DNA of 64,000 nucleotides from Geodermatophilaceae bacterium NBWT11 (GTDB taxonomy: Bacteria > Actinomycetota > Actinomycetes > Mycobacteriales > Geodermatophilaceae): the NCBI GenBank assembly GCA_014218215.1, contig CP043652.1:1798001-1862000 (forward strand), in the 5' to 3' direction. Under the pieces are notes generated by a model. It was not told the DNA's origin and searched no databases. It saw nothing but the letters and a program-made list of their open reading frames with translations. Position 1 is the first letter of the stretch. Every line of letters starts with the position of its first letter. Shown piece by piece: positions 20,447-39,980 of this stretch. Made by a program: the position numbers and the translations under genes.

Positions 20447-21874
20447 TCAGCCCGCCGGCGGCCTCGCGGGCAGCAGCGCCCGGGCGTCCCGGGCCCGGAG
20501 CGCGCCCCGCCACAGCCCGGCGCCGTAGGCCAGGTCCTCCAGCCGGCGGGCAGCCACGAAGCGGGGCAGGTCGACGTCCCGGCGGTGCGGCCACCAGGCG
20601 CCGACCCCGTCGGCCAGCGCAGCCAGCAGGGTCAGCCGGCGGGCCCGGCCGGACACCGCCAGGAGCGGGAGGACCAGCGGCCAGTGGTGCCGGGTGACCG
20701 AGCGGGCCAGCGTGCGGCCACCGGCCCAGGTGCCGCGGACGACCAGGGTGGCGGCGAGCCCGACGGGTGCGGGCTCGCCGGGGCGGGCCAGCCGCCGGGA
20801 CAGCGTCCGGGTGGCGACGCCGAGCACGCCGGCGCCGGCGACCAGCCCCGGGCGTCCGCCCAGCAGGACGCAGGCCCACGCCGCGGCCGACCACGGGGAC
20901 ATCACCACCGGGGCGACCGCGCTGCCGTGCCGCTGGGCCAGCAGGGCGGCTCCGGTGCCGTAGAACGCCCGGCGGCGCAGCCACTCCCCCGTCGCCCGGG
21001 GGTGCTGGTGGTCCACCTGCGCGCCGGGCTCGTAGCGCACCCGCCACCCGGCGCCGGCCAGCCGCCAGACGAGGTCGACGTCCTCGGCGACCCGCATGGT
21101 CTCGTCGAACCCGCCGCCCAGCGCGGCCCGCCGGACCAGCAGGGCCGCGCTCGGCACGTAGGAGACCCCCGACAGCGGGGTCACCGGCGCGGGGTGGCGG
21201 CCCATGTCCAGCGCGCTGACCGTGTCCTCGTACCCGCCCACCCAGCCGGAGCCGTCCCCGGCCAGGGCGGTGATCCGGGGCGCGACGACGGCCAGCCGGG
21301 GGTCGGCCAGGTGCGCGGCCAGCACCCCGAGCCACCCGGGGCGGGGCACGCAGTCGGAGTCCAGGAAGGCCACCGCTGCGGTGCCGGCCGCGCGCAGGCC
21401 GGCGTTGCGGGCCGCCGAGGGGCCGCGGGCCACCTCGTGCCGGAGCACGTCGGCCCGGTGTGCGGCGCACACGCGGGCCACGGCGCCGGGGTCCGCCGAG
21501 CCGTCGTCGACCACCACGACCGGGACGGCGGCCGTCTGCGGGTCGGCGCGCACCGCGGTGAGCAGGCGGTCCAGGCCCGCCGTGCGGTCCTTCACCGGGA
21601 CGACGACGGTGACGCCGGCCGGGGTGACCGGGCCGAGCCGCGGGTGGGCGAGGCCGCTGTCGAGCAGCCGCCCGGCCAACGCCGCGGTGGTCGGGTCCGC
21701 GACCGTGAGCCCCTCGCCGGCGAGCAGCTCGCGGGCCCGGGGCGCGAGCCGGAGCAGCCGCAGCGGCGAGCCGCCCAGCAACGTCGCCCCGGCGTCCCGG
21801 CGCCGGACCCGGGGGTCCAGGGCGACCACGAACCCGTCCGGCAGCCTCGCGTCCGGTGGAGCCGTCACCGGCAC
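20447..21874 (-). CDS. mftF: Mycofactocin glycosyltransferase MftF
   Basis: 475 aa from GTG 21874. The N-terminal RLPDGFVVALDPRVR and LLGGSPLRLLRLAP are characteristic of MftF. The GT2 domain follows (VTVVVPVKDR near residue 90, VVVDDGS, FLDSDCVP with the DxD-like metal site, ETMRVAEDVDLVWR as the ED acceptor region). A membrane-associated C-terminal part comes last. MftF attaches an oligosaccharide (beta-1,4-glucan in mycobacteria) to mycofactocin. Here it is separated from mftE by a four-gene surface module and follows the sortase by 32 nt, so it is probably read from that transcript. Confidence 0.92.
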   Translation of the reverse strand: MPVTAPPDARLPDGFVVALDPRVRRRDAGATLLGGSPLRLLRLAPRARELLAGEGLTVADPTTAALAGRLLDSGLAHPRLGPVTPAGVTVVVPVKDRTAGLDRLLTAVRADPQTAAVPVVVVDDGSADPGAVARVCAAHRADVLRHEVARGPSAARNAGLRAAGTAAVAFLDSDCVPRPGWLGVLAAHLADPRLAVVAPRITALAGDGSGWVGGYEDTVSALDMGRHPAPVTPLSGVSYVPSAALLVRRAALGGGFDETMRVAEDVDLVWRLAGAGWRVRYEPGAQVDHQHPRATGEWLRRRAFYGTGAALLAQRHGSAVAPVVMSPWSAAAWACVLLGGRPGLVAGAGVLGVATRTLSRRLARPGEPAPVGLAATLVVRGTWAGGRTLARSVTRHHWPLVLPLLAVSGRARRLTLLAALADGVGAWWPHRRDVDLPRFVAARRLEDLAYGAGLWRGALRARDARALLPARPPAG

Positions 21875-21906
21875 GGGCGGACGGGCAGGACGGACACGGG
21901 ACGAGG

Positions 21907-22509
21907 TTAGGGGCTGACCCGACTGGCGAAGACGATGGTGTTGTCCTCGTAGGAGCGCACCGACCGGTCGAACTCCCCGCCGCAGGTGATCAGCCGCAGC
22001 TGGGCGTCCGGGGTCGGGCCGTAGACCTCGGCGGTCGGGAAGTCGTCCTTGGGCGCGGACTCCACCCGGTCCACCCGGAAGGTCGGGGCGGTCCCGTCGG
22101 AGAGCTCGACGACCACCTCGTCGCCGGGGGCGAGCTCCCGCAGCCGGTAGAACACCGCCGGTCCGTCGACGGAGTCCACGTGGCCGGCCACCACCGCCGG
22201 CCCCCGCTCACCGGGCACCGTCCCGTCGGCGAACCACCCGGCGCGGTCGAAGTCCACCGGCGCCGCGAGGCTCCCGTCGGGCAGCAGCCCGAGGGCCTCC
22301 AGCCCGGTCGCGTCGACCCCGATCGCCGGGACGGTCACCCGGGTCACCGTGGGCGCTGCGTCCTCCAACGGCTGCGGGCCGGGCAGCGAGGTGCTGGCGG
22401 CCGGCGCGGGGACCGACGACGGGGCGGCTCCCGGTGCCGCGACGGCACCGCCGCACCCGGCGAGCAGGAGGCCGACGGCGAGCAGGCCGGCGGCCCGGAC
22501 GGCGCTCAG
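21907..22509 (-). CDS. Class F-like sortase, lipoprotein form, probable CTG start
   Basis: About 200 aa. Sortase residues: His in VVAGHVDS, Cys in LITCGGEFD, then RSVRSYEDNTIVFA supplying the Arg region; this is the class F pattern. The N-terminus is hydrophobic and ends in lipobox LLLAGCGG. No ATG, GTG or TTG lies in frame near the signal sequence; the only sensible start is CTG 22509, whose CTGA overlaps the stop of the upstream DUF4397 gene. It should act outside the membrane, anchoring a partner protein. The substrate is unknown; the adjacent DUF4397 protein is the natural candidate. Confidence 0.85.
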   Translation of the reverse strand: MSAVRAAGLLAVGLLLAGCGGAVAAPGAAPSSVPAPAASTSLPGPQPLEDAAPTVTRVTVPAIGVDATGLEALGLLPDGSLAAPVDFDRAGWFADGTVPGERGPAVVAGHVDSVDGPAVFYRLRELAPGDEVVVELSDGTAPTFRVDRVESAPKDDFPTAEVYGPTPDAQLRLITCGGEFDRSVRSYEDNTIVFASRVSP

Positions 22510-23342
22510 ACCGTCCGCCGGCGGGCCACCACCGGCACGACCACCGCCGCGGCGAGCACCAGGCCGGCCAGCGTCGCCGGACCGCGGTCGGCCGGCGCCG
22601 TCCCACCGCCACCGGTCTCCACCCCGCCGCTGGGGGTGACGCCGGTGCCGGCCGCGTCCTGCAGGGCGGTGACCGTGACGGACCCGTCCGGTGCGTCCAG
22701 GGCGACCAGGGTGTTCACGCTGCCCGGCTCGACCCGCACGCCGGTCGCCGTCCCCACCTGGGCGCCGTCGGCGTCCACCGCCAACGACCACACCCCGGCC
22801 GGGATCTCGGCGTAGCCGGTGGCCGTGGCGAAGGCCGCGTCCCGGGCCAGCACCGGCCCGTCGACGGCGGTGACGGTGACGGAGGGGTGGCTCACCGAGG
22901 CCTGCAGCAGCCGGATCCGGGCCTGCCCGTCCGGCGGGGTGCTGAGGTCGTCGGTGAGCACGGTGCCGGTCAGGTCGGCGTTGAGCCCGACCGCGGCCAC
23001 CGTGTAGGCCTGCCCGTCGGCCACCGTGACCGACTGGGTGATCGCCGGCGGGTCGGCGGCGTCGCCGCCGGCCGGGACCATCGAGGCGGTGTAGGTGCCG
23101 GCGGGCACCCGGGTGTAGTCCGACACGTCGCCGTAGGCCACGTCGCTCAACGCCAGCACCGAGCCGGAGTCGCTGGCCGCGGTGAGCTGGACGTCGACCG
23201 CGGGGGTGTCCGGGGACAGGTGGGTCAGCCGGACCCACCCACCGGTCGTGCCGTCCGCGGGCGCCGCGGCGGCGACCGCGGGGACCCCCAGGACGGCGAG
23301 GGCGGTCAGGGTCAGCACACCGAGTGCGCGTCGGACGGTCAT
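22506..23342 (-). CDS. DUF4397 domain surface protein with C-terminal membrane segment
   Basis: 278 aa from ATG 23342, with GGAGG 6 nt upstream. A signal peptide (residues 1-26, ending AAAA) is followed by two tandem DUF4397-type beta domains (WVRLTHLSPDTPAVDVQL near residue 35 and ARIRLLQASVSHPSVTVT near residue 140). A Gly/Thr linker, a hydrophobic segment and RRR end the protein. The tail looks like a sorting signal, but no clear LPxTG is seen before the membrane segment. The class F sortase is coupled to it by overlap, so it may recognise a divergent motif in the linker. Confidence 0.85.
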   Translation of the reverse strand: MTVRRALGVLTLTALAVLGVPAVAAAAPADGTTGGWVRLTHLSPDTPAVDVQLTAASDSGSVLALSDVAYGDVSDYTRVPAGTYTASMVPAGGDAADPPAITQSVTVADGQAYTVAAVGLNADLTGTVLTDDLSTPPDGQARIRLLQASVSHPSVTVTAVDGPVLARDAAFATATGYAEIPAGVWSLAVDADGAQVGTATGVRVEPGSVNTLVALDAPDGSVTVTALQDAAGTGVTPSGGVETGGGGTAPADRGPATLAGLVLAAAVVVPVVARRRTV

Positions 23343-23362
23343 GGTTCCTCCAGGGCGGGTGG

Positions 23363-24916: not shown

Positions 24917-25503
24917 CAGCGCTTGCGCTTGCGCTTGGCCGGCGGGCGGCCGGGAGTGCGGGTCGAGCCGCCGGCGGCCGTGACCCGGGCGGCCGGTCGC
25001 TGCGCCGGGCGACGGACGGCGGGCGGGGCGACGACGGGGGCCGGCTCGACGGCAGGCCCGGCGGAGGAGGACGGCTCGGGCTCGGTGGGCTCGGGCTCGG
25101 TGGGTTCCGGCTCGGTGGCTCCGGCCTCGTCGACGACGGGAGCCACCTCGGACTCGGCCGCGGGCTCGACGACCGGCGCGGACACCGGTACCGGCTCGAC
25201 GTCGTCGGTCGCCCGGCCGCGCCGGCCGACCACCACGGCGCCACCGAGCCCGGCGACGAGCACCGCAGCGCCGCCGCCGACGGCCATCCAGGCGCCACCG
25301 CGGGACTCCTCCACCTGCTGCACCGGCCGGGCCGGCGTGCTCGGCGCCTCCGTGGTGGGGGCGGTGGTCGGCGTGGGCGTCGTCGTGGCCGGGGGCAGCA
25401 GCTGCGAGGGCGGTGCCGGTGCCGCGAGGGCCGCGGAGGCGCCGCCCAGCACGACGGCGACCGCGGCCGGCAGCACCCACGTACCCACTCGGTCCAGCAC
25501 CAC
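24916..25503 (-). CDS. Secreted or membrane protein with Thr/Pro linker and acidic-to-basic tail
   Basis: About 195 aa from GTG 25503 (GTG 25500 is next in frame). A signal peptide ends ALAAPAPP. A Thr/Pro-rich stretch (TTTPTPTTAPTTE) follows, then one membrane helix near residues 70-95. The cytoplasmic tail has three TEPEP repeats and ends very basic (PPAKRKRKR). First gene of a probable four-gene surface operon. No domain recognised; bitopic organisation suggests a scaffold linking wall and cytoplasm. Confidence 0.7.
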   Translation of the reverse strand: MVLDRVGTWVLPAAVAVVLGGASAALAAPAPPSQLLPPATTTPTPTTAPTTEAPSTPARPVQQVEESRGGAWMAVGGGAAVLVAGLGGAVVVGRRGRATDDVEPVPVSAPVVEPAAESEVAPVVDEAGATEPEPTEPEPTEPEPSSSAGPAVEPAPVVAPPAVRRPAQRPAARVTAAGGSTRTPGRPPAKRKRKR

Positions 25504-25666: not shown

Positions 25667-26362
25667 TCACCCCAGCAGACGGCCCCCGGCGTCGACCTGC
25701 CAGTTCCCCACGGCGACGACGAGCCGGTCGACCATCCCCGCGAGGAACCGCGCACCCTCCGCCGCGGTGGCGCCGGCCGGGTCGCCGAGCACCCCGTTCG
25801 GGCTCACCCCGCGCACGCCCTCGGCCCGCAGCCGGGGCAGCAGCTCGCCGATCGGGGCCGTTTCTCCCGCCTCGGCCCGGTCCGGCCGCACGGCGTCCGG
25901 TTCCACGTGCAACAGCAGCGAGGTCTCGGTGCGCCCGGCGTGCGCGTCGCCTCCCGCCACGCCGCACGGGAACCAGGCGACGTCCCGCCCCTCGTGCCGG
26001 AGCAGCGCCACTGCCGCGCGCAGCGCCTCGAGGTTGCCGCCGTGCCCGTTGACCACCAGCAGTCGGCCCGCCCACAGCCCGGCCGAGCGGCCCAGCTCGA
26101 CGAGCACCGCGGTGAGCGCCTCGGTGCCCAGCGACACCGTGCCGGGGAACCCCTCGTGCTCCCCGCTCGCCCCGTAGGGCAGCGCGGGGGCGAGCAGCAG
26201 CCCGGGCACGCGGGCCACCGCGGCGCCGGCGACCGCGGCGGCCACCGTGGTGTCGGTGCCCAGCGGCAGGTGCGCGCCGTGCTGCTCCACCGAGCCCAGC
26301 GGGACGACGACGGTGGGCCGGTGCGGCAGGTCCGGGGAGTGCGCCGTCCGCAGCTCGCTCAC
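25667..26362 (-). CDS. mftE: Mycofactocin precursor peptide peptidase MftE (creatininase family)
   Basis: 231 aa from GTG 26362, overlapping the OYE2 stop by GTGA (GTG 26365 is an alternative). Creatininase-fold metal ligands are visible: LGSVEQHGAHLPLGTDT (E and D with H), NGHGGN and HAGRTETS with E. MftE cleaves MftC-modified MftA to release the C-terminal Val-Tyr-derived core. Length and motif order fit MftE well, and coupling to a mycofactocin-type OYE supports it over a plain creatininase. Confidence 0.92.
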   Translation of the reverse strand: MSELRTAHSPDLPHRPTVVVPLGSVEQHGAHLPLGTDTTVAAAVAGAAVARVPGLLLAPALPYGASGEHEGFPGTVSLGTEALTAVLVELGRSAGLWAGRLLVVNGHGGNLEALRAAVALLRHEGRDVAWFPCGVAGGDAHAGRTETSLLLHVEPDAVRPDRAEAGETAPIGELLPRLRAEGVRGVSPNGVLGDPAGATAAEGARFLAGMVDRLVVAVGNWQVDAGGRLLG

Positions 26363-28317
26363 CACGCCAGCACCACCCGCTCGGCCTCCACCACCGCGGC
26401 GGTGGCACCGCGCGGGGCCAGGCAGTCACCGATCCGGTGCACCTCGAGGCCGCCGTCGACGAGCTCCTGCCACAGCTCGTCGGCCGGGGTGGGGGGTGCG
26501 GCGGTCACGACCCAGTCGACCACCCGCACCTCCTCGGCACCGGTCGGGTGGTGCAGCAGCCGGACGCTCCGCCGGCCGTCGTCCCGGCGGTGCACGCCGA
26601 GGACGACCCGCTCGACGGTCTGGGCGATCCCTGCCGCGGCGGCCCGGCGGTGCCAGAGCTCGCGGTCCAGCGTGGGGCCGAGGTCCTGGGCGGCGACGAA
26701 CGCGCCGCTGACCACCTCGACCCGGCAGTCCCCGGCGGCCAGCAGCTCGGCGGTCGACGTCGCGTGCGGCCCGCCGAGCTCGTCGACGACCAGCACCGAG
26801 CCGGCCGGCGTCACCGCTCCGGTCAGCACGGGGACGACGTCGACCACCCGCCCGTCGTCGTCGGCCCAGGCCGGCCGGGCCGGACGGGCCCCGGTGGCCA
26901 GCACGACGACGTCCGGCCGGTCGGCCAGCAGCTCGGCGGCGGTGACCCGGTGCCCGGTGCGCGGTTCCACCCCGGCCCGCCGGCAGGCGTGCAGGTCGGC
27001 GGCGACCAGCCCACCGAACCCGGCCCGCCCGGGGGCTGCACCCGCCACCGCGACCTGCCCGCCGACGGCGCCCCCGGCCTCCAGCAGGGTGACCCGGTGC
27101 CCGCGACCGGCGGCCGTGGCCGCGGCCCGCAGCCCGGCCGGACCGGCGCCGACGACCACCACGCGGCGGCTGCGCCGGGGGGCGGGCACGACGACGGACT
27201 CCCGGCCGGCCCGTGGGCTCACCTGGCAGCCCAGCCAGCGGTTGGCCCCCACCCGGGCGGCGCACTCGGTGTTGCAGCCGGTGCAGGGCCGGACGTCGTC
27301 CGCCCGCCCGGTGCGCAGCTTGGTGACCAGGTCGGGGTCGGCGACCTGGCCGCGGACGATGCCGACCAGGTCGCAGGAGCCGGTGGCGAGGGCGTGCTCG
27401 GCCTGGTCCGCGGTGACGATCCGCCCCACCCCGACGACCGGCAGCTCGCTGCCGTCGGCGCGCAGGGCGGCTCGGATGTGGGCGGCCAGCGGCAGTGCGT
27501 AGCCCGGCGGGGTGGCCATCGAGGGCTCGACGAGGTGCAGGGACTCGGTGGCCACCCCGACGGTGGTGGAGAGCAGGTCGACCCGACCGGTGCCGGCCAG
27601 CAGCCGGGCGGTCGCGACGGCGTCCCCGGTCGTCGTCCCGTCCGGTTCGGCGGCGGCCAGTCGGACACCGAGCAGCAGGTCGGGTCCCAGTGCGTCCCGG
27701 ACGGCGTGCACCACCTCCAGCAGCAGCCGGGCCCGGTGCCCGACCGGCCCGCCCCAGCGGTCGGTGCGCCGGTTGGCGGTCGGGGAGAGGAAGGCGCGCA
27801 GCAGCGAGGACTGCGAGGCCTGCAGCTCGACGCCGTCCAGCCCGCCGGCCCGGCACCGTGCGGCGGCCGCGGCGAACGCGGTGACGACGGCGGCGAGGTC
27901 GGCGTCGGTGGCCTGCCGGGGGACCTCGCGGAACAGCGCGTCGGCCGCCGGCGAGGGGGCCAGCAGCGGCACCCGGCTGTGCAGCGAGCTGCCCTGCCCG
28001 CCGTTGTGGTTGAGCTGGGCGAGCACGAGTCCGCCGTGCGGGTGCACCGCGGCGGCCAGCTCGGCGTACCAGTCCACGATGCCGGGGCCGGTGCCGTCGA
28101 GGACCTTCTCGTAGGGCCGGTCGTCGGCGGTGACCGCCTGCTCCTCGGTGATCACCAGTCCGGCGCCGCCCGCCGCACGGGCCGCGTAGTACGCGGTGTG
28201 GGCTGCGGTGGGTCGCCGGTCCAGCGCCTGGTTGGTCAGGTGCGCGCAGAACACCACGCGGTTGGGCAGCGTCCGGCCGCGCAGCTGCAGCGGGGCCAGG
28301 AGCTGCGGGTGGGGCAC
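26359..28317 (-). CDS. Mycofactocin-system FadH/OYE-type FeS flavoprotein (oxidoreductase 2)
   Basis: 652 aa from GTG 28317. Residues 1-340 are an Old Yellow Enzyme TIM barrel (LPNRVVFCAH, NHNGGQGSS, GVELQASQSSLLRAFLSPTANRRTDRWGG split around residue 170-195). Next comes the FadH 4Fe-4S cluster CTGCNTEC...C (C-x2-C-x3-C-x11-C). The FAD/NAD(P)H domain (VVVVGAGPAGLRAA) follows. Members of this family are known near mycofactocin genes; their role is not established. A linked NAD(P)H-FAD-FeS-FMN chain could regenerate or reduce a redox cofactor (inference). Coupled to mftE. Confidence 0.88.
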   Translation of the reverse strand: MPHPQLLAPLQLRGRTLPNRVVFCAHLTNQALDRRPTAAHTAYYAARAAGGAGLVITEEQAVTADDRPYEKVLDGTGPGIVDWYAELAAAVHPHGGLVLAQLNHNGGQGSSLHSRVPLLAPSPAADALFREVPRQATDADLAAVVTAFAAAAARCRAGGLDGVELQASQSSLLRAFLSPTANRRTDRWGGPVGHRARLLLEVVHAVRDALGPDLLLGVRLAAAEPDGTTTGDAVATARLLAGTGRVDLLSTTVGVATESLHLVEPSMATPPGYALPLAAHIRAALRADGSELPVVGVGRIVTADQAEHALATGSCDLVGIVRGQVADPDLVTKLRTGRADDVRPCTGCNTECAARVGANRWLGCQVSPRAGRESVVVPAPRRSRRVVVVGAGPAGLRAAATAAGRGHRVTLLEAGGAVGGQVAVAGAAPGRAGFGGLVAADLHACRRAGVEPRTGHRVTAAELLADRPDVVVLATGARPARPAWADDDGRVVDVVPVLTGAVTPAGSVLVVDELGGPHATSTAELLAAGDCRVEVVSGAFVAAQDLGPTLDRELWHRRAAAAGIAQTVERVVLGVHRRDDGRRSVRLLHHPTGAEEVRVVDWVVTAAPPTPADELWQELVDGGLEVHRIGDCLAPRGATAAVVEAERVVLAW

Positions 28318-28375: not shown

Positions 28376-28384
28376 CTGGCCCCG

Positions 28385-30093: not shown

Positions 30094-30624
30094 TCAGTCG
30101 GTGAAGACGGCGGTGAGCGCGCGGGCGACGTCGGTGTGGTCGCGGACCAGCCGGATCCGGCCGCGGCCCATCCGGGCGAGGTCGCGGCCGAGCTCGACGT
30201 CGTCCTCACCGCTGGTGTCCAGCAGCACGTCCAGGCGGGGCAGCCGGGCGGCGGTGGTGCGCGGGTCGGGGCCGGCGTTGTGCACGCAGTCGGACAGCAG
30301 CAGCACCCGGGCGTCGCGCGGCGGCACCCCGGCCAGCAGCCGGCCGGCGGTCTCCAGGGCGAAGGAGACGTTGGTGAGTCCCTGGGTGGGCACCCGCAGC
30401 AGGAGGTCGAGCACGCCCAGCGGCTCGACGGGGGCCCCGAGCGGGACGAGCACCGCGGCGTCGGACCAGAAGGCGACGACGGCCAGGGAGTCCCGGCCCA
30501 GCTCGCCGGCCAGCGCGCCGACGGTGGCCGCCGCCGTCCGCAGCCGCTCGCCCTTCATCGACCCGGAGACGTCCACGACCAGCACGACCGACCGCTTCGT
30601 GCGCACCCGTTCGCGCACCACCAC
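30094..30624 (-). CDS. VWA (von Willebrand A) domain protein, intact domain of an apparently frameshifted gene
   Basis: 176 aa if started at GTG 30624, but coding similarity clearly continues upstream without a stop as GVGELTSQRWAGGSDELD and has no ATG/GTG there. The MIDAS metal site is complete: DVSGSMK near residue 20, the Thr in QGLTNVSF and the Asp in LLLSDC. MoxR-VWA pairs (CoxD/CoxE type) act together as AAA+ chaperones that mature or activate metalloenzymes. The MoxR ATPase lies upstream. The N-terminal half of the protein continues in another frame (see the adjacent entry), so the gene is either frameshifted or translated only from the internal start. Confidence 0.72.
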   Translation of the reverse strand: MVVRERVRTKRSVVLVVDVSGSMKGERLRTAAATVGALAGELGRDSLAVVAFWSDAAVLVPLGAPVEPLGVLDLLLRVPTQGLTNVSFALETAGRLLAGVPPRDARVLLLSDCVHNAGPDPRTTAARLPRLDVLLDTSGEDDVELGRDLARMGRGRIRLVRDHTDVARALTAVFTD

Positions 30625-31094
30625 GTCGTCGTCCTCGGGCAGCGGCTTGCCGGCGACGAGCTCCAGCGTGCGCTCGAGGTCCAGCTCGTCGGAGCCCCCG
30701 GCCCAGCGTTGACTGGTCAGCTCCCCGACCCCGCGCCGGGCCCGGCGGTCCCGCGGGGGCGGGGCACGGCGAGCCGGCGGGCGATCTGCCGGGCCCGCTG
30801 ACGGGTGCGGGCGTCGGCCTCGGCGAGCACGTCGAGGTCGGCCAGCGGGATCAGCTCGGCCGGTTCGTCCGTCGTCCCCGGACCGGACCCACCACGCCGC
30901 GCCGCGGCCTCCTTCGCGCGCCGCCGGTCACCCGACGACAGCGCGAGACCGGACCCGCCCTTCGCCGGCTCGTAGGTGGCGGGTTGCTCGGTCAGCTGCT
31001 TGGGACGACGCCGCAGGGGCTTCAGCGTGCGGTGCTGTCGAGAGCTCCCCGGCCGGTCGCGGCGGGTGACCGGGGAGTCGGCCTCGACGGTCCT
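30625..31094 (-). pseudogene. 5' half of the VWA gene: frame change near 30750 and no normal start codon
   Basis: Directly after the MoxR stop, the frame reading RDRPGSSRQHRTLKPLRRRP ... QLTEQPATYEPAKGGSGLAL ... DLDVLAEADARTRQRARQIARRL looks like the N-terminal region of a MoxR-linked VWA protein. It has no ATG, GTG or TTG until GTG 30830 and ends at a TGA at 30717. Adding one C in the C/G run around 30750-30757 would join it to the downstream frame as RRDRRARRGVGELTSQRW. A real frameshift, a sequencing error in a GC run, or use of a CTG start are all possible. Confidence 0.5.
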
Positions 31095-32066
31095 TCAACC
31101 GGGCTCCGCGGCTGCCGGCTGCAGCAGGAAGTGGTCCTCCCAGATCTCCCGCAGCACGCCTTCGGGGGTCTGCTCGGCGATCTCGTCCAGGTGCACCCGG
31201 CCCGACAGCGCCAGCATCACGGCGTCCCAGACCACGGCCGTGTAGTCCTCGGGCAACCCGCGCGGCGGGGCCACCGACGGCTCGTCCGGGAGCGGGACCC
31301 CGCGCATGGCGGCGAGCTGGGCGGCGACCAGGGCGACGTCGATCGCCCCGCGCACCGAGCTGCCCTGCCGGACGTCGTCCCGCTCGCGGGTGGCCCGGGT
31401 GAGCGCGACGGCATCGGCGACCAGCCGGGGTGACTCCACCCCCGTGCGTCGTCCGACGATGCCGCGTTCGGCCTCGGCGTCCTGGTAGTCCACGGCCAGC
31501 CGGCACATCCGGTCCGACACCGAGGTGGGCATCCGCGTCGTCCCCACCGCGTCGTAGGGGTTCATCGAGGCGACCACCCGGAAGGTGGGTGCGGCGTCGA
31601 CGGTGCCCACGGTGGGCACCGTGATCCGTCGTTCGGCCATGGCGGTGAGCAGGGTGTTCAAGGTGTCCTCGGGGGCCCGGTTGAACTCCTCGACGTAGAG
31701 GAACCCGCCCTGGCGCATGGCCTCGACCAGCGGACCGGGGACGAAGTTGTCCGCGGTGTAGTCCTCGCGCAGCACCCGGGCCGGGTTGTGGTGCCCCACC
31801 AGCCGGGTGGGGGTGAGGTCGGCGTTGCCCTCGACGAAGAGCAGCGGGATGCCCCACTCGGCGGTGATCGAGCGCAGCAGGGTGGACTTCGACGTGCCGG
31901 GCGGACCCTCGAGCAGCACGTCGCGGCCGGCGGCGACGGCGGCCAGCAACAGGTCCGTCTCCCGTTCGCGGCCGACCAGGTGGGTGGCGACCCGGGCACG
32001 GACCTCGCGGACCGTGCCTGCGTCCAGACCGGTGACCCGGCTGCCGGTGATGGTGCTGTCGTCCAT
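31095..32066 (-). CDS. MoxR-family AAA+ ATPase (CoxD-like)
   Basis: 323 aa from ATG 32066. Walker A GPPGTSKST near residue 55, Walker B region GGFLYVEEFNRAPEDTLNTLL near residues 115-135, sensor 1 ASMNPYD and an Arg finger in SVSDRMCRL. The deviant Walker B (VEEFNR) and the length fit MoxR ATPases. Partner is the VWA gene immediately downstream. It follows the mycofactocin SDR group by 56 nt on the same strand and may be co-transcribed. Confidence 0.9.
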   Translation of the reverse strand: MDDSTITGSRVTGLDAGTVREVRARVATHLVGRERETDLLLAAVAAGRDVLLEGPPGTSKSTLLRSITAEWGIPLLFVEGNADLTPTRLVGHHNPARVLREDYTADNFVPGPLVEAMRQGGFLYVEEFNRAPEDTLNTLLTAMAERRITVPTVGTVDAAPTFRVVASMNPYDAVGTTRMPTSVSDRMCRLAVDYQDAEAERGIVGRRTGVESPRLVADAVALTRATRERDDVRQGSSVRGAIDVALVAAQLAAMRGVPLPDEPSVAPPRGLPEDYTAVVWDAVMLALSGRVHLDEIAEQTPEGVLREIWEDHFLLQPAAAEPG

Positions 32067-33833: not shown

Positions 33834-33873
33834 GTGACCAGGACCCCGGCGTCGGCACCCGCCACCGGGTGGG

Positions 33874-34713
33874 TCACTTGATCACCGAGCCGGCGTCGAC
33901 GGGGAGCTGGACGCCGGTGACGTACCGGCCGTCGTCACTGACCAGGAAGAGGATCGCGTTGGAGATGTCGACCGTCTCGACCCACTCGACGGGCAACGCG
34001 TTGAGCGTCTTGAACGACTCGGCAGCCTCCTCCCGGGTCACCTCCGACCCTGGCTTGTCCGGCCGGAAGGTCCCGTAGGTCTGCTCGTTGTGGATCATGT
34101 CGGTGCTGACCGAGGTCGGGTGCACCGAGTTGACCCGGATCATGTCCGGGGCGAACTCGTTGGCGAAGGTCTTCATGAGGCCGACCACGCCGTGCTTGGC
34201 CGCCACGTAGTGCGCCAGGTTGCCCAGGCCCTTGATGCCGGCCGTGGAGCTGGTGAGCACGATCGCCCCGCCTCGGCCACCGGCCTTGATGTGCGGCACC
34301 GCCGCCCGGACGGTCTTGAAGACGCCGGTGAGGTTGACCCCGATCATCTCGTCCCACATCTCGTCGGTCAGGTCCTCGACCGGCGCGAAGCTGGCGATCC
34401 CGGCGTTGGCCAGCACGATGTCCAGCCGGCCCAGTTGAGCCACCCCGTCGTCGACGGCCGCCGTCAACGCCGCGGTGTCCCGGACGTCGGCCCTGCTGGC
34501 GATGATGCGGCGGTCCAGTGCCTCGACCTGACGGACGGTCTCGTCCATGTCGGCCTGGGTGGCCTGGGGGTAGCCGACCGTCGCCATGTCCTGGAGGTGG
34601 TCGACGGCGATGACGTCGGCCCCCTCCTGCGCCAATCGGAGAGCGTGGCTGCGGCCCTGCCCCCGGGCCGCACCGGTGATGAAGGCGACCTTGCCCTCCA
34701 GCCGGCCGGTCAC
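33874..34713 (-). CDS. Mycofactocin-coupled SDR family oxidoreductase (2nd of the series)
   Basis: 279 aa from GTG 34713, overlapping the stop of the preceding SDR by [26 protein letters not shown] with catalytic Ser, YVAAK. The long open frame continuing to 35574 is an artefact of overlap with the first SDR. The segment after YVAAK includes the lid [19 protein letters not shown], longer than in the first SDR. Confidence 0.88.
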
Positions 34714-35531
34714 TTGACCACGAACCCGGCGTCGACGGGCACGGTGATGCCGGTGACGTAGCGGGCCTCGTCGGAGACCAGCCAGGCGATGGCGTTGGAG
34801 ATGTCCGCGGCCTGGATCAGCTCCACCGGCATCAGGTTGGCCACCATCGCCGCCGCGTCCGGGTTCTCCGCGATCCAGGTGCCGATGACCTCGTTCATCA
34901 CCATCGGGGTCTCCACCCCGGTCGGGTGCACCGTGTTCACCCGGATGCTGTGCGGCGCCAGCCAGTTCGCGAAGCTGCGCATCAGGCCGACGACGCCGTG
35001 CTTGCTGGCCGCGTAGGCGGTGGTCGCGCCGCTGCCGTCCCCGCCCCGGCCGGTGAGGCCCTGGGTGGAGCTGGTCAGCACGATCGCCCCGCCGTCGCCC
35101 TGCTCGATCATCCGCGGGGCGGCGACGTGCACGGAGTTCCACACCCCGGTGAGGTTGACCCCGATGACCTCGTCCCAGGTGACCTGGGTGTCGCGCTCCG
35201 GCCCGCCCTGCGGGGCGATGCCGGCGTTGGCCAGCACGATGTCCACGCGGCCCAGCTCGGCCACGCCGGCGTCGAGCGCGGCCTGCATCGCGACGACGTC
35301 GCGGACGTCGGCCTGCCGGGCGACGATGCGCCGGTCCAGCGCCTCGACCTGGCGGACGGTCTCCGCCAGGTCCTCCGGTGTGGCCATGGGGTAGCTGACG
35401 CTGCTCATCTGCTCGCACAGGTCCACCGCGATGACGTCGGCCCCCTCCTGCGCCAACCGGAGTGCGTGGCTGCGGCCCTGACCTCGGGCCGCACCGGTGA
35501 TGAAGGCGACCTTGCCCTCGAGCTTGCCCAT
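34710..35531 (-). CDS. Mycofactocin-coupled SDR family oxidoreductase (1st of the series)
   Basis: 273 aa from ATG 35531, with GGAGGAAC upstream. [12 protein letters not shown] and the loop [18 protein letters not shown]; catalytic Ser in [10 protein letters not shown], then a small Gly-rich insertion ([11 protein letters not shown]) and YAASK. It differs most from the other three around the lid ([17 protein letters not shown]). It lies just past a terminator hairpin, so the SDR group probably has its own promoter in the short gap at 35532-35573. Confidence 0.9.
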
Positions 35532-35573
35532 CTGTGGTTCCTCCTCGTCGAGTCCCCCGCTGTGTGTGGTGCA

Positions 35574-35601
35574 CGACCCGACGCGTCGGTGCGTCGGGTC
35601 G
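35574..35601 (-). terminator. Hairpin terminator after the mftABC-OYE1 transcript
   Basis: CGACCCGACGC - GTCGGT - GCGTCGGGTCG, an 11-bp perfect stem immediately downstream of the TGA of the 39-aa ORF. It separates the mft transcription unit from the SDR genes. Confidence 0.75.
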
Positions 35602-35721
35602 TCAGGGCCCCGAGGGGGCCGCGGCCACCGGCCGCCCGGTTCGCGGCTTCCACGCCGCCGGGCCCCGCAGGTACCAGGGCTTGCTGACCGACAGGGACTC
35701 CAGTGCCGGGGTCGGGCTCAC
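35602..35721 (-). CDS. 39-aa ORF coupled to the OYE1 gene
   Basis: GTG 35721 overlaps the OYE1 stop by GTGA, and the TGA is followed at once by a terminator hairpin, so the ORF is the last cistron of mftA-mftB-mftC-OYE1. Almost every third codon position is G or C. The peptide is [20 protein letters not shown] in its first half and Pro/Ala-rich after it, with two Trp and one Tyr, no signal peptide and no membrane helix. I recognise no family. It could be a second peptide substrate, a small accessory protein, or chance. Confidence 0.55.
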
Positions 35722-37577
35722 GCGGGCACCGCCGTCCGCGCGGACGCCGCGAGCGCCGCCCGCCGGCCCTCGAGCACGGCGTCCAGGACGGTGCGCGGGG
35801 CGACGACGTCGCCGGCGAACCGCTCCCGGCCCTCGTCGGGCAGCACCCGCCCGGGCAGCCGGTGCCCGGCGTCGACGACGGCGGTACAGGGCACCTCGAC
35901 GACGGCCCCGCTCCACCGGTGCTCCAGCACCGCGACCCCGTCGGCCCACGAGCGCAGCAGCACCGCGGTCTCCCGGCGCACCCCCGCCCGGGCCAGCCGG
36001 CCGTTGGCCGCGGCCAGGTCACCGGACGGGCCGAGCATCGAGCCGACCACGTCGTCCGGGGTGGCCAGCACGACGTCCCGGCCGTCGGCGGCCAGCAGCT
36101 CGGCGACCCCCACCCCGACCGGGCCGCCCACCGGGTCGTGCACCAGCACCGGCCCGTCCGGCAGCACGGCCCCGGACAGCACGTCGGCGACGGACACCGC
36201 GCCGGGCACGACGGGCACCCCGGGCAGCCCGCCGGTGGCGACCACGTCGGCGTCGTCGACCCGGCCCACGGTGAACCGCACCCCGAGCCGGACGCACTCA
36301 CCGGCCAGCCAGTCGGCGAACCGCCGGAATCGTTCCCGCCCGGGGGCAGCCGCGACCACGGGCAGCAACCCACCGACCGCGGGCGCCACGACCTCGACGG
36401 CGTGCCCACGCAGCGCCAGCACCCGCGCGGCCTCCAGCCCGGCCGGCCCGGCACCGGCGACCACGACGGGGCGGCCGTCCGAGGGCGTGGGCAGGTCGAC
36501 GTCGGGTTCGGTGGTCTCGTGGCCCGACCGCGGGTCGAGCACGCAGCTGACCGGGGGGTTGCGGGTGTCCAGCACCTGACAGGCCTGGTTGCAGAGCACA
36601 CAGGGCCGTGGTGTCCGGCCGGCCCGCAGGGTCGCGACGTAGGAGGCGTCGGCGATCAACGCCCGGGTCATCTCGACCGCGGTGCACCCGGCCGCCAGCA
36701 GCTCCTCGGCTCGGCCGGCGTCCACGATCGAGCCCTGGGCGACCACCGGGGTGTCCCCCGCGGCGGCCAGCAGTTCCCCGTGGAACGCGGGCCGACGGTG
36801 CGCAGTGGGCCGGTACGCCGCGAGGTCCAGCGCGCTGCCGCGCACCAGGGTGAGCAGGTCGACCAGCGGCGCGAGCTCGCCCACCAGGGCGACCGAGGAG
36901 GTCGGGGTGAGACCGGCCCAGGGGGCGCCCTCGTCCGCCGACAACCGCAGCGCCAGCACCCGGTCGGGGCCCTGCGCAGCCCGGACGGCGGCCAGCACCT
37001 CGCGCAGCAGCCGCGACCGGTCGGTGCCGTGGGCGTCGGTGCGGGTGTTGGTCAGCCCGGAGAGGAACTGGCGGAGCAGTGAGCGGGGGCCGGCATCGAC
37101 CTCCACGCCATCCAGCCCGGCCGCCACCGCGGTGGCCGCGGCACCGGCGAACCCGGCGACCAGGGCGGTCAGCTCGTCCTCCCCCATCGGCGCCGGCACC
37201 TCACGGGTGACCACGTCGGGCACCCGGGAGGGACCCCAGAGGGCGGCCTGCGTCCAGGCCGAGGAGCCCTGCCCGCCGGTGTGGGTGAGCCCGGCGAGCA
37301 CCAGCGTGCCGTGCGGGCGGCAGGCATCGCCCACGGCAGCCCACCCGGGGCCGCAGTCGGCAGCCAGCGGGGCCCGTTCGTAGGGGTGGTCCGAGGGGTG
37401 CACGGACGCCGCCTCGGTGACCAGGACGCCGGCACCCCCGGCCGCACGTCGCGCGTAGTAGGCGATGTGCCGGGGGGAGAACGACCGACCCGCTCCCAGG
37501 TTGGTCTCGTGCGGGCCGAACAGCACCCGGGAGGGCGCCGTCCGGCCCGCCACCGGGAGCGGGTCGGTCAGTCGCAT
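35718..37577 (-). CDS. Mycofactocin-system FadH/OYE-type FeS flavoprotein (oxidoreductase 1)
   Basis: 619 aa from ATG 37577, 13 nt after the mftC stop. OYE barrel (SRVLFGPHETNLG near residue 15, THTGGQGSS near 95, GVEVDAGPRSLLRQFLSGLTN near 165), 4Fe-4S site CVLCNQAC...C (C-x2-C-x3-C-x11-C), then FAD/NAD domain VVVAGAGPAGLEAA. Same architecture as the protein at 26359 but clearly diverged. It is directly in the mftABC operon, at the place where mftD stands in mycobacteria, so a role in cofactor completion or recycling is possible (inference). The C-terminal half is shorter than in E. coli FadH. Confidence 0.88.
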   Translation of the reverse strand: MRLTDPLPVAGRTAPSRVLFGPHETNLGAGRSFSPRHIAYYARRAAGGAGVLVTEAASVHPSDHPYERAPLAADCGPGWAAVGDACRPHGTLVLAGLTHTGGQGSSAWTQAALWGPSRVPDVVTREVPAPMGEDELTALVAGFAGAAATAVAAGLDGVEVDAGPRSLLRQFLSGLTNTRTDAHGTDRSRLLREVLAAVRAAQGPDRVLALRLSADEGAPWAGLTPTSSVALVGELAPLVDLLTLVRGSALDLAAYRPTAHRRPAFHGELLAAAGDTPVVAQGSIVDAGRAEELLAAGCTAVEMTRALIADASYVATLRAGRTPRPCVLCNQACQVLDTRNPPVSCVLDPRSGHETTEPDVDLPTPSDGRPVVVAGAGPAGLEAARVLALRGHAVEVVAPAVGGLLPVVAAAPGRERFRRFADWLAGECVRLGVRFTVGRVDDADVVATGGLPGVPVVPGAVSVADVLSGAVLPDGPVLVHDPVGGPVGVGVAELLAADGRDVVLATPDDVVGSMLGPSGDLAAANGRLARAGVRRETAVLLRSWADGVAVLEHRWSGAVVEVPCTAVVDAGHRLPGRVLPDEGRERFAGDVVAPRTVLDAVLEGRRAALAASARTAVPA

Positions 37578-37590
37578 GGAGGGAGCGGCC

Positions 37591-38823
37591 TCAGCGGAGG
37601 TCGAGGCCCGCCAGCGGCGACTCGTCACAGATCTTCGCCGGCGGGATCGCCGGCATGCCCAGCAGCGTGGGCTGACCACGGACCGGGCCCTTGTGCGAGT
37701 GGTCGACGTGCGACTTGGGGGTGACGAGGTCCAGGTCACGGGCGGCCAGCGCGTTCTCGCCGTAGCCCTGCACGCACTCGGGGTCGGGTCCGTCCAGCGG
37801 CAGGCCGGTGAAGAACTTGGCCGCCATGCAGCCACCGCGACAGGAGTCGAAGTGCTGGCACTTGGTGCAGGCGCCACCGGTCTGCGGGTTGCGCAGGTCG
37901 GCGAACAGCTCGCTCTGCTGCCACACGGTCTGGAAGCCGCCGGGGCTGCGCACGTTGCCGGCCAGGAAGTTCTCGTGGATGGCGAACGGGCAGGCGTAGA
38001 CGTCCCCGACCGGGTCGATCAGGCAGACCACGCGGCCGGCGCCGCACAGGTTCAGCCCGGGCAGGGCCTCGCCGAACGCGGACAGGTGGAAGAACGAGTC
38101 GCCGGTGAGCACGTTGTCGCCGTTGGCCAGCAGCCAGTTGTAGAGGTCCCGCTGCTGGGCCATCGTCGGGTGCAGGTCGTCCCACACGTCGGCCCCGCGG
38201 CCCGAGGGTCGCAGCCGGGTGATGCGCAGGGCAGCACCGAAGGAGTCGGTGAGGGCCTTGAACTCGTCGAGCTGCCCGGCGTTCTCCCGGGTGACGACGA
38301 CGGAGACCTTGAAGTCCTTCATCCCGGCCTCGGCCAGGTTCTCCAGGGCCTTGATCGCCATGTCGAAGGACCCGGTGCCGCGGACCCGGTCGTTGACCGC
38401 CGCGGTGGCACCGTCGAGGGAGATCTGCACGTCGACGTAGTCGGTGCGGGCCAGCTGGGCGGCGCGCTGCTTGTCCAGCTTCACGCCGTTGGTGGAGAAC
38501 TTGACCCCGACGTCGTGGCCGATCGCGTAGTCGAGCAGGTGCCAGAAGTCGGGCCGCACGGTGGGCTCGCCGCCGCCGACGTTGACGTAGAAGACCTGCA
38601 TGCGCTGCAGCTCGTCGATGACGCCCTCGGCCTCGGCGGTGGTCAGCTCGCGCGGGTCGCGACGGCCCGAGGAGGACAGGCAGTGCGCACACGCCAGGTT
38701 GCAGGCGTAGGTGAGCTCCCAGGTCAGGCAGATGGGGGCGTCCAGGCCGTACTCGAACTGGTCGATCAGCTTGCCGCCCGTGGGGCGTTGGACCGGGGCG
38801 CGCGTGGGGAGAACGGCGGTCAC
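37591..38823 (-). CDS. mftC: Mycofactocin radical SAM maturase MftC
   Basis: 410 aa from GTG 38823, overlapping mftB by GTGA, with AGAGGA upstream. Radical SAM cluster CNLACAHC (Cys 41, 45, 48), then GGGEPTVRPDF. A C-terminal SPASM-type region carries the auxiliary cluster Cys (CGAGR, CPFA, CTKCQHFDSCRGGC). MftC performs the oxidative decarboxylation and C-C bond formation on the terminal Val-Tyr of MftA. Gene order mftA-mftB-mftC makes the assignment secure. Confidence 0.97.
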   Translation of the reverse strand: MTAVLPTRAPVQRPTGGKLIDQFEYGLDAPICLTWELTYACNLACAHCLSSSGRRDPRELTTAEAEGVIDELQRMQVFYVNVGGGEPTVRPDFWHLLDYAIGHDVGVKFSTNGVKLDKQRAAQLARTDYVDVQISLDGATAAVNDRVRGTGSFDMAIKALENLAEAGMKDFKVSVVVTRENAGQLDEFKALTDSFGAALRITRLRPSGRGADVWDDLHPTMAQQRDLYNWLLANGDNVLTGDSFFHLSAFGEALPGLNLCGAGRVVCLIDPVGDVYACPFAIHENFLAGNVRSPGGFQTVWQQSELFADLRNPQTGGACTKCQHFDSCRGGCMAAKFFTGLPLDGPDPECVQGYGENALAARDLDLVTPKSHVDHSHKGPVRGQPTLLGMPAIPPAKICDESPLAGLDLR

Positions 38824-39185
38824 GGTGTCCTCTTCTCGATCATCTGGGAACGCGAGAGCGTGGCCAGCGCGGTGACGTAGGCCGGGTGCTGGGCCGCGGG
38901 CACGTCGCAGGCGACCAGCGTGCTGGGGACGTCGGGGTGGTCCCCGAGGGCCTTGACGACGGCGACCAGCGGCTGGGACTTCAGGAACGACAGCTTGCGG
39001 TTGCCGAAGTGGTAGACCAGCGCGCCGAAGGGCTCGGGCCGCAACGCCACCGACGCCGACTTCTGCCAGGGCAGGGACGGGTCGAAGGGCAGCTCGTCAG
39101 CAGGGACGACCACCGCATCCGCGGCCGGCTCGGTGCCGGCCGCGGAGTCGGTGACCAGTGCGGTGTCGATCAGTACACCCCGCAC
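38820..39185 (-). CDS. mftB: Mycofactocin RRE chaperone MftB
   Basis: 121 aa from GTG 39185, overlapping mftA by 16 nt; GTG 39113 is a shorter alternative, and most homologs begin near the PFDPSLPW segment. The RRE fold is indicated by VALRPEPFGALVYHFGNRKL and SFLKSQPLVAVV, diagnostic for MftB. It binds the MftA precursor and presents it to MftC. The stop overlaps the mftC start. Confidence 0.93.
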   Translation of the reverse strand: MRGVLIDTALVTDSAAGTEPAADAVVVPADELPFDPSLPWQKSASVALRPEPFGALVYHFGNRKLSFLKSQPLVAVVKALGDHPDVPSTLVACDVPAAQHPAYVTALATLSRSQMIEKRTP

Positions 39186-39289
39186 ATGCCGTCGATGGAG
39201 ACCTCCTCCACCAGGGAGTCCTCGACGAGGGCCTCCTCGGCGGCGGGAGCGGTGGTCTCGACGGTCTCGGCCTGCGTCTGCTCGGGCAC
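39170..39289 (-). CDS. mftA: Mycofactocin precursor peptide MftA
   Basis: 39 aa from GTG 39289, with AGGAGG 5 nt upstream. The C-terminus reads EEVSIDGMCGVY, the invariant MftA core ending in Val-Tyr, which becomes the redox-active cofactor. The leader is acidic and Thr/Ala/Glu-rich. First gene of the mft unit, and divergent from mftR. Confidence 0.97.
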   Translation of the reverse strand: MPEQTQAETVETTAPAAEEALVEDSLVEEVSIDGMCGVY

Positions 39290-39333
39290 GGGTGCCTCCT
39301 GGTGAGCTGGGTCACGGAACCCCCCGCACGCTA

Positions 39334-39350
39334 GTGGCACCCAGTGCCAC
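39334..39350. promoter_or_regulatory. Palindromic operator candidate in the mftA-mftR intergenic region
   Basis: GTGGCAC-CCA-GTGCCAC, perfect 7-bp arms, in the 106 bp between the divergent starts. The strand toward mftA has TAGCGT right beside it as a possible -10. A TetR-type dimer of the adjacent MftR is the natural binder. Confidence 0.6.
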
Positions 39351-39395
39351 CGGGCAAGGGGACCACCCGGTCGCCCCTCGGGGCATGATCGGGTG

Positions 39396-39980
39396 GTGAC
39401 CGAGACCGGGGGCGACGCCCGCGAGGCGACCCGTGCCCGCATCGAGGCCGCCGCCCTGGAGCTGTTCACCCGGCGTGACTTCGAGACCGTCACTGCCGAC
39501 GAGGTCGCCGACGCCGCGGGGATCAGCCGACGGACGTTCTTCCGGCACTTCGCCACCAAGGCCGACGCCGTGTGGGGGGACTTCCACGCCCACGTGGTCC
39601 GGCTCGACCAGCTCCTGGCCGGCACCGATCCCGACCAGCCGGTGCTCGCCTCGATCTGCGCCGCCTACGTCGAGGTCAACGACTACGACGCCGCCGACCT
39701 GCCCCTGCTGCGGCACCGGATGCGGCTGATCCTCACCGAGCCGGCCCTGCAGGCGCACTCCCAGGTGCGGTACGCCGACGTCGACCTGGTGGTCGCCGAG
39801 CACGTCGCCCGGCGCACCGGCGCCGACCCGCACTCGCTCGTGCCGCGGCTGGTGGCCACCGCGACCCGGGCGGCGGCGACGACGGCGTTCGAGACCTGGC
39901 TGATCGGCGAGGGCTCGCTGGCCGAGGACCTGCACGCGGCGTTCGACGAGCTGGCCGGGGGCTTCCCCGGCCTGCGCTGA
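39396..39980 (+). CDS. mftR: Mycofactocin TetR-family regulator MftR
   Basis: About 194 aa from GTG 39396 (GTG 39393 also possible). N-terminal TetR helix-turn-helix: RIEAAALELFTRRDFETVTA and ADEVADAAGISRRTFFRHFATK. Position directly divergent from mftA with a palindrome in between marks it as MftR. In mycobacteria MftR represses mft genes and responds to acyl-CoA; ligand not verifiable here. Confidence 0.88.
   Translation: MTETGGDAREATRARIEAAALELFTRRDFETVTADEVADAAGISRRTFFRHFATKADAVWGDFHAHVVRLDQLLAGTDPDQPVLASICAAYVEVNDYDAADLPLLRHRMRLILTEPALQAHSQVRYADVDLVVAEHVARRTGADPHSLVPRLVATATRAAATTAFETWLIGEGSLAEDLHAAFDELAGGFPGLR

What the first reader, a model, noticed from the sequence alone, without database searches (positions are those of the whole stretch)
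20447..39980. Dispersed mycofactocin locus with two OYE-type flavoproteins, four SDRs and no visible mftD/mftG
mftR and mftA-B-C are at one end, mftE 12 kb away and mftF at the other end, with two FadH/OYE FeS-flavoproteins (one inside the mftABC transcript, one coupled to mftE) and four tandem mycofactocin-type SDRs between them. In mycobacteria MftD completes the redox core and stands next to mftC. No such gene is seen here; OYE1 occupies its position. The OYEs may substitute for MftD/MftG in cofactor completion or electron disposal, an inference. MftD may simply be elsewhere in the genome.
Basis: partly seen in the sequence, partly recalled or inferred. Interest (0 to 1): 0.75.

Follow-up and report, generated by a model that had tools for sequence, protein, structure and literature searches.

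The report
Mycofactocin genes with paired flavoenzymes
A soil bacterium's mycofactocin cofactor genes include a pair of flavoenzymes; it keeps the usual enzymes elsewhere, but in related bacteria that lack the usual final-step enzyme MftD this pair sits with an electron-carrying module that appears to take MftD's place.

Summary
The gene layout is as described: mftR, mftABC-OYE1, four TIGR03971 SDRs, OYE2-mftE, mftF. The central inference fails for this genome, a Klenkia-group member: it holds MftD 45.7 kb beyond mftR (700 bits, cut-off 471) and a family-level MftG (457 bits, cut-off 387).

The idea has a real kernel elsewhere. Of 100 mftC+ genomes of the class tested, OYE1 occurs in 16 of 17 without MftD and 5 of 83 with it. 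An etfA-fixC-fixX-etfB module stands beside OYE1-OYE2 in 19 of 20 decidable MftD-less genomes and 0 of 20 MftD+ ones, the window included. Ten plasmids with mftC split into 4 MftD-only and 6 OYE-ETF-only.

Best reading: an ETF/quinone-linked dehydrogenase of trimethylamine/histamine-dehydrogenase architecture replaces MftD in a second type of mycofactocin cluster; the window carries the ETF-less sister form beside a normal MftD. Counts are not independent: seven changes on the MftC tree, three well-supported pairs, all concordant. No enzyme was assayed.

The parts
39393..39980 (+). mftR, TetR-type regulator
   Evidence: TIGR03968 230 bits over cut-off 225
39170..39289 (-). mftA, precursor peptide ending IDGMCGVY
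   Evidence: translation and junction
38820..39185 (-). mftB, peptide chaperone (start may be 39113)
   Evidence: TIGR03967 104 bits; start choice
37591..38823 (-). mftC, radical SAM maturase; the only copy over cut-off in the genome
   Evidence: TIGR03962 649 bits
35718..37577 (-). OYE1, FadH/OYE-type Fe-S flavoprotein, 13 bp after the mftC stop
   Evidence: TIGR03996 723 bits; junction; model mean pLDDT 85
34710..35531 (-). mycofactocin-coupled SDR
   Evidence: TIGR03971 388 bits
33874..34713 (-). mycofactocin-coupled SDR
   Evidence: TIGR03971 404 bits
32997..33833 (-). mycofactocin-coupled SDR
   Evidence: TIGR03971 408 bits
32123..32959 (-). mycofactocin-coupled SDR
   Evidence: TIGR03971 419 bits
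31095..32066 (-). MoxR-type AAA ATPase between the SDRs and OYE2
   Evidence: PF07728; same place in Klenkia-group relatives
30094..30624 (-). vWA/CoxE-like protein, C-terminal part; open frame shorter than in relatives
   Evidence: PF13519
26359..28317 (-). OYE2, FadH/OYE-type Fe-S flavoprotein overlapping mftE
   Evidence: TIGR03997 784 bits, cut-off 793; four Fe-S Cys invariant; model mean pLDDT 89
25667..26365 (-). mftE, peptidase
   Evidence: TIGR03964 331 bits
20447..21874 (-). mftF, glycosyltransferase
   Evidence: TIGR03965 492 bits

Best explanation
The window holds a spread-out but complete mycofactocin (MFT) biosynthesis locus whose MftD lies 45.7 kb beyond mftR. OYE1 and OYE2 are partner subunits of one Fe-S flavoenzyme with the architecture of trimethylamine and histamine dehydrogenases. 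In a second type of MFT cluster found in other actinobacteria (in its compact form mftABC-OYE1-OYE2-etfA-fixC-fixX-etfB with mftE and mftF; in some genomes split over two places), this enzyme replaces MftD. It would oxidise the 3-amino group of AHDP to the keto group of premycofactocin and pass the electrons from its 4Fe-4S clusters to a dedicated ETF, then through the FixC/FixX-like ETF:quinone oxidoreductase to the quinone pool, without using O2. The window carries the ETF-less sister form, which coexists with MftD, so in this genome MftD should make premycofactocin and the OYE pair should be accessory. Shown: gene content, the MftD/ETF exclusivity, fusions, architecture. Inferred: substrate, direction, electron path, and the accessory role here.
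For: MftD and MftG-family genes in the genome. OYE1 in 16 of 17 MftD-less and 5 of 83 MftD+ mftC+ genomes; OYE1 in 21 of 113 mftC+ and 2 of 281 mftC- genomes. ETF module beside the OYEs in 19 of 20 decidable MftD-less and 0 of 20 decidable MftD+ OYE1+ genomes; none of the 94 sequences holds both MftD and the module. Plasmids: of 10 with mftC, 4 MftD-only and 6 OYE-ETF-only; all six with full modules by tblastn, five of them annotated records. mft_etfA and mft_etfB over NCBIfam cut-offs. OYE1-OYE2 fused in 5 of 25 loci. The ten best PDB matches of each model are naphthoyl-CoA reductase, histamine dehydrogenase, dienoyl-CoA reductase, a HisD amine oxidase and trimethylamine dehydrogenase. ETF-linked OYE2 keep a His (26 of 26) that phmmer aligns with the active-site His of histamine dehydrogenase; 18 of 23 ETF-less ones, the window's included, have Gln. 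Literature passages: MftD loss abolishes premycofactocin (PMC7491314); the MftD step is called aerobic (PMC8406134); trimethylamine dehydrogenase passes electrons from its 4Fe-4S centre to ETF (PMC8097209).
Against: Nothing was assayed. Genomes are not independent: seven changes on the best MftC tree, three pairs on well-supported branches, all concordant, sign test p 0.25; on the OYE tree the ETF state changes only once. MftD absence was judged at E 1e-120 or 1e-100, so a divergent MftD elsewhere in an MftD-less genome could be missed. Four OYE1+ class genomes beside the window keep MftD (G038, G162, G181, G233), as do all 8 sampled genomes of its genus, so OYE1 alone does not mark loss. G347 is MftD-less with a truncated OYE2 and no ETF within 8.4 kb. 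Marinactinospora (G206) and G152 have the OYE-ETF genes, in G152 only their start before the contig ends, without an mftC match. mftE was not seen in the stretches held of G100, G111, G132 and G331. The covalent-FMN Cys of histamine dehydrogenase is not conserved. A genome-wide search for the ETF genes in the window's genome was not possible.
Confidence: 0.6

Rival explanations
1. The OYE1-OYE2-ETF-FixCX chain reoxidises mycofactocinol to mycofactocinone and feeds the quinone pool, doing MftG's job; premycofactocin is made by an unrecognised enzyme in MftD-less genomes.
For: The ETF:quinone path is what a cofactor oxidase would need; 4 of 6 MftD-less genomes have no MftG over cut-off; two subunits could serve two reactions.
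Against: OYE1 shows no exclusion of MftG (13 of 18 against 38 of 62) but near-complete exclusion of MftD. It leaves the MftD step unfilled, which is essential in M. smegmatis (PMC7491314).
Confidence: 0.2
2. The OYE pair is a catabolic ene-reductase acting on enones made by the neighbouring mycofactocin-coupled SDRs; the link with MftD loss is hitch-hiking of cluster types.
For: Four SDRs lie between OYE1 and OYE2 in the window; SDRs accompany the pair in Klenkia and several Rhodococcus loci and in the MftD-less L031. The fold includes dienoyl-CoA and naphthoyl-CoA reductases.
Against: Does not explain MftD loss. Other type II clusters have no SDR match between OYE1 and OYE2 (L074, L077, L084). 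The second Rossmann motif resembles that of histamine dehydrogenase rather than the NADPH motif of dienoyl-CoA reductase in the printed alignments. ETF plus ETF:quinone oxidoreductase suits an oxidation.
Confidence: 0.12
3. In the window the OYE pair is a decaying or repurposed relic of an ETF-linked enzyme with no remaining part in mycofactocin metabolism.
For: ETF-less OYE2 mostly have Gln in place of the active-site-aligned His, and OYE1 of three MftD-bearing Pseudonocardia lost Fe-S cysteines. In the genus OYE2 is full length in 6 of 8 genomes; in G437 it is in pieces, in G432 cut by a contig end.
Against: In the window all eight Fe-S cysteines and both open frames persist, OYE1 stays 13 bp from mftC and OYE2 overlaps mftE; OYE1 is kept in 8 of 8 sampled genomes of the genus. 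The root of the OYE tree is unknown, so which form is older is not settled.
Confidence: 0.25

Closest known systems
Mycobacterial mft cluster mftR-A-B-C-D-E-F(-G)
   Same: Same mftA, B, C, E, F, R genes; MftD is in the same genome.
   Different: mftD is 45.7 kb away, OYE1 follows mftC, OYE2 precedes mftE, with four SDRs and unrelated genes between.
NCBIfam TIGR03996/TIGR03997 'mycofactocin system FadH/OYE family oxidoreductase 1/2'
   Same: OYE1 over cut-off; OYE2 best match 784 bits against 793.
   Different: These model names give the association only.
NCBIfam NF038209 and TIGR04503 'mycofactocin-associated electron transfer flavoprotein'
   Same: Found beside the OYEs in MftD-less clusters.
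   Different: Not in the window, and none seen beside the OYEs of 20 decidable MftD-bearing genomes.
Trimethylamine / histamine dehydrogenase
   Same: Fold over the full length, 4Fe-4S Cys set, and an ETF partner in type II clusters.
   Different: Covalent-FMN Cys absent; a pair of subunits, fused in some; substrate unknown.
2,4-dienoyl-CoA reductase FadH, 2-naphthoyl-CoA reductase
   Same: Same multi-domain architecture.
   Different: NADPH-type second Rossmann motif not seen in the printed alignments; Ser where the catalytic Tyr of FadH stands (Tyr position recalled).

Membership tests
Mycofactocin biosynthesis cluster | mftA, B, C, E, F present | tested here: met
Mycofactocin biosynthesis cluster | MftD (TIGR03966) in the genome | tested here: met
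   700 bits, cut-off 471
Mycofactocin biosynthesis cluster | MftG (TIGR03970) in the genome | tested here: met
   457 bits, cut-off 387; not near the mft genes; not placed on an MftG tree
TIGR03996 OYE1 | score over the curated cut-off | tested here: met
   723 against 628
TIGR03997 OYE2 | score over the curated cut-off | tested here: not met
   784 against 793; best family by far, full length
Type II cluster (OYE-ETF, no MftD) as defined here | ETF/FixCX module beside the OYEs and no MftD | tested here: not met
   window has no ETF match there and the genome has MftD
Trimethylamine/histamine dehydrogenases | fold over full length | tested here: met
   TM 0.77-0.88 by query length over both models
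Trimethylamine/histamine dehydrogenases | covalent 6-S-Cys-FMN cysteine | tested here: not met
   no Cys at the aligned place; position of the Cys partly recalled
Trimethylamine/histamine dehydrogenases | amine oxidation with ETF as acceptor | not testable with these tools
   needs assay

The most novel reading that the evidence does not exclude
Actinobacteria have two exchangeable ways to complete mycofactocin: the O2-linked flavoprotein MftD, or a six-gene O2-independent module, OYE1-OYE2 with its own ETF and ETF:quinone oxidoreductase, which deaminates AHDP and conserves the electrons in the quinone pool. The window shows a lineage that keeps MftD and an ETF-less OYE pair side by side.
Probability: 0.55. 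Interest if true: 0.8.

Novelty: new variant of a known kind. Interest (0 to 1): 0.6.

Why it matters
It was noted in 2011 that the MftD family is not universal among mycofactocin genomes (PMC3023750, passages), and MftD loss abolishes the cofactor in M. smegmatis (PMC7491314, passages). I found no answer, in the papers I could search, to how MftD-less organisms finish the molecule. This analysis names one specific candidate module with a proposed electron path, so the question can be tested directly. If true it would also explain how mycofactocin can be completed at low oxygen, and it would assign two 'mycofactocin system' OYE families to biosynthesis. For the window alone the finding is modest.

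Tried and rejected
Rejected: MftD or MftG missing from this genome (the first MftG model tried, TIGR04542, gave only 145 bits, being the Gordonia model according to PMC11778925). Not supported: OYE replaces MftG. Set aside as an exception: G308, MftD-less without OYE1, because its contig ends 13 bp after the mftC match. Rows on the MftC tree: the first tree contained one row on the wrong strand, mended; G308 and the partial G209 were dropped, and G181, G324 and G347 were left uncounted for the ETF trait there. On the OYE tree L070 and L073 were skipped for short pieces. OYE2-like proteins below the TIGR03997 cut-off also occur without OYE1 in other genomes (G056 576 bits, G258 496 bits), so OYE1 was used as the marker. 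Rfam, promoter scans, the viral fold library and VIA-align were not used.

Limits of the literature check: searches in an open-access library; 'mycofactocin' with 'electron transfer flavoprotein' gave 0 papers, 'mycofactocin' with 'old yellow enzyme' 1, unrelated by title. One search listed 10 of 408 papers holding two of five terms, none of the ten with mycofactocin. Papers were read as found passages only; others seen only as listings. The 2019 MftD biochemistry paper was not read. That actinobacteria use menaquinone is recalled.
Full report
WHAT IS THERE. The window lies in a 4.59 Mb single-contig genome. Its genus code also covers Klenkia soli (G414), Klenkia terrae (G437) and Modestobacter sp. 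Leaf380 (G428), as contig lengths and MftD coordinates show, so it is a Klenkia-group member of the Geodermatophilaceae. OYE1 begins 13 bp after the mftC stop and OYE2 overlaps mftE. The four SDRs are all TIGR03971 over cut-off. Between the SDRs and OYE2 lie a MoxR ATPase, a vWA protein, a PNPOx-like protein and a periplasmic binding protein; between mftE and mftF a 517-residue frame without Pfam match, a DUF4397 protein and a class F sortase.

MFTD AND MFTG ARE IN THE GENOME. MftD scores 700 bits (cut-off 471) at 1883714-1884910, 45.7 kb beyond mftR. MftG by TIGR03970 scores 457 bits (cut-off 387) at 1437592-1439157; this rests on a family model only. In three relatives of the family without OYE1 (L103, L104, L105; G395, G404, G390) mftD stands downstream of mftR, on the strand opposite to mftABC, while in G399, also without OYE1, mftC and mftD lie on different contigs. 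An unlinked mftD is therefore not by itself a sign of replacement.

OYE1 AND MFTD ACROSS THE CLASS. Of 394 genomes drawn from the class, 113 have mftC. OYE1 is over cut-off in 21 of these 113 and in 2 of the other 281. MftD was tested in 100 of the 113 (40, 60; the 13 left out are all of family f2). It is absent or below cut-off in 17, counting as present G140, whose match of 470.3 bits is cut by a contig end. OYE1 is in 16 of the 17 and 5 of the 83 (Fisher p 2e-13, not corrected for kinship). The exception, G308, has about 1200 contigs and its mftC contig ends 13 bp after the match. G324 has a 420-bit relative below the cut-off. Within the window's family, 42 of 42 hand-picked mftC+ genomes have MftD and 11 of 42 have OYE1, eight of them all the genomes of the window's genus in that set.

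THE ETF MODULE. In four MftD-less loci scanned with profile libraries the stretch after OYE2 holds mft_etfA (NF038209), a FixC-like flavoprotein and mft_etfB (TIGR04503), with a FixX-like ferredoxin in the one where it was scanned (L074, L077, L040, L084; not every gene of every locus was scanned). I then checked by tblastn every OYE neighbourhood held. Of MftD-less OYE1+ genomes, 20 could be decided: 19 have the module or as much of it as the stretch holds (G006, G017, G086, G100, G111, G132, G172, G198, G232, G242, G260, G300, G316, G331, and named loci L031, L040, L057, L063, L069) and one, G347, does not, its OYE2 being truncated. G324 is cut by a contig end; the Desulfovibrio MAG L071 has only weak, divergent ETF matches and is set aside. 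L057 (=G206) lacks mftC in the class search, and L063 shows none in its locus. Of MftD-bearing OYE1+ genomes, 20 could be decided and none has it (G000, G038, G162, G233, G396, G406, G407, G414, G421, G422, G428, G437, L028, L030, L041, L043, L050, L051, L059, L068); G181, G432 and G433 are cut by contig ends. Fisher p 3e-10, again uncorrected. None of the 94 sequences holds both MftD and the module. In L077 the genes mftA-B-C-OYE1-OYE2-etfA-fixC-fixX-etfB-mftE-mftF run on one strand within 10.7 kb. In G100, G111, G132 and G331 the OYE-ETF module is away from mftC, with an MftR-like gene beside it, and mftE was not seen in the stretches held.

TEST ON PLASMIDS. Ten of 72,556 plasmid records match MftC at 1e-70. 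Four carry MftD and no OYE1, six carry OYE1 and no MftD (Fisher p 0.005). All six match OYE1, OYE2, etfA, fixC, fixX, etfB, mftE and mftF by tblastn. Among Streptomyces plasmids, NBC_00080 reads mftR, mftG, then mftA-B-C-D-E-F and NBC_00334 reads mftA-B-C-OYE1-OYE2-etfA-fixC-fixX-etfB-SDR-mftF-mftE: the six-gene module stands where mftD stands. Chromosomes of these strains were not searched.

KINSHIP. On a tree of 96 MftC proteins MftD changes state four times, G308 left out, with two supported pairs, both concordant. With 19 more rows (nine MftD-less, several of them reached through OYE1) and two dropped, the tree of 113 shows seven changes of each trait; three pairs on well-supported branches all agree, none disagree, sign test p 0.25. 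On a tree of concatenated OYE1 and OYE2 (49 loci) the ETF state changes once: ETF-linked (26) and ETF-less (23) pairs form two groups and the window is in the ETF-less one. The pattern is consistent but rests on few independent events.

WHAT THE ENZYME IS. OYE1 and OYE2 are fused in one open frame of about 1300-1400 residues in four loci of the Frankia genus code and in Pseudonocardia N23 (5 of 25 loci checked; family matches to both halves of the G038 protein), which argues that they work together. AlphaFold models (mean pLDDT 85 for OYE1, 89 for OYE2) have as their ten best PDB matches 2-naphthoyl-CoA reductase, dienoyl-CoA reductase, histamine dehydrogenase, the HisD amine oxidase and trimethylamine dehydrogenase, all over full length. 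All four OYE2 Fe-S cysteines are present in 49 of 49 rows; those of OYE1 are mostly or wholly lost in three Pseudonocardia (L050, L059, L068) and the fourth is lost in L040 and L069. At window OYE2 residue 170 the ETF-linked proteins have His in 26 of 26, and ETF-less ones mostly Gln (18 of 23), as in the window. phmmer aligns that His with the His of the histamine dehydrogenase motif, with a one-residue gap beside it (His174 and Tyr171 stacking on histamine in docking, PMC10180351 passages; that this His is the aligned one is my reading of the motif). The Cys that carries covalent FMN there is not conserved.

HOW IT PROBABLY WORKS. MftD oxidises the 3-amino group of AHDP (PMC8728441 passages), its loss abolishes premycofactocin (PMC7491314), and the step is described as aerobic (PMC8406134). 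Amine oxidation by an Fe-S flavoenzyme of this architecture with electron transfer from its 4Fe-4S centre to ETF has a precedent in trimethylamine dehydrogenase (PMC8097209). A dedicated ETF and an ETF:quinone oxidoreductase-like pair in the same operon would complete a path to the quinone pool. That the substrate is AHDP is inferred from the exclusion of MftD and not shown. In the window MftD is present and the ETF partner is not beside the OYEs (a genome-wide search for it was not possible), so I expect the OYE pair to be accessory there.

NOVELTY. The NCBIfam names show that curators had linked these OYE and ETF families with mycofactocin. I found no paper in the library holding both mycofactocin and electron transfer flavoprotein, only an unrelated one with old yellow enzyme, and none listed that ties these to MftD absence; subscription papers are largely outside that library. 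The window itself is a member of a known kind; the second cluster type is a new variant.

Noticed in passing
window 30094-31095, minus strand: The vWA/CoxE-like gene after MoxR looks split between two frames: 101 stop-free residues upstream of the vWA part here against 157-173 in 11 loci of 7 relatives.
   Followed up: partly
L036, L044, L045, L093, L068: Natural OYE1-OYE2 fusions in Frankia-code loci and, separately, in Pseudonocardia N23.
   Followed up: partly
L050, L059, L068 (OYE1): OYE1 of three MftD-bearing Pseudonocardia has lost most or all Fe-S cysteines.
   Followed up: no
L097, L098, L099, L100: Klenkia soli (G414) and G432 carry two MftD genes each over cut-off.
   Followed up: no
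L090 (Marinactinospora thermotolerans, G206) and L091 (G152): OYE1-OYE2 with ETF genes (in L091 only etfA before the contig ends) in genomes where the mftC search found nothing.
   Followed up: no
L213, L214, L216, L217: Type II mycofactocin clusters on Streptomyces plasmids lie beside polyketide-type biosynthesis genes.
   Followed up: no
L071 (Desulfovibrio MAG): Two tandem OYE2-like genes, an MftF-like and an MftC-like gene, weak ETF matches nearby, no MftD at 1e-100 in the genome.
   Followed up: no
window 39986-40561, minus strand: A second TetR-type regulator abuts mftR tail to tail.
   Followed up: no
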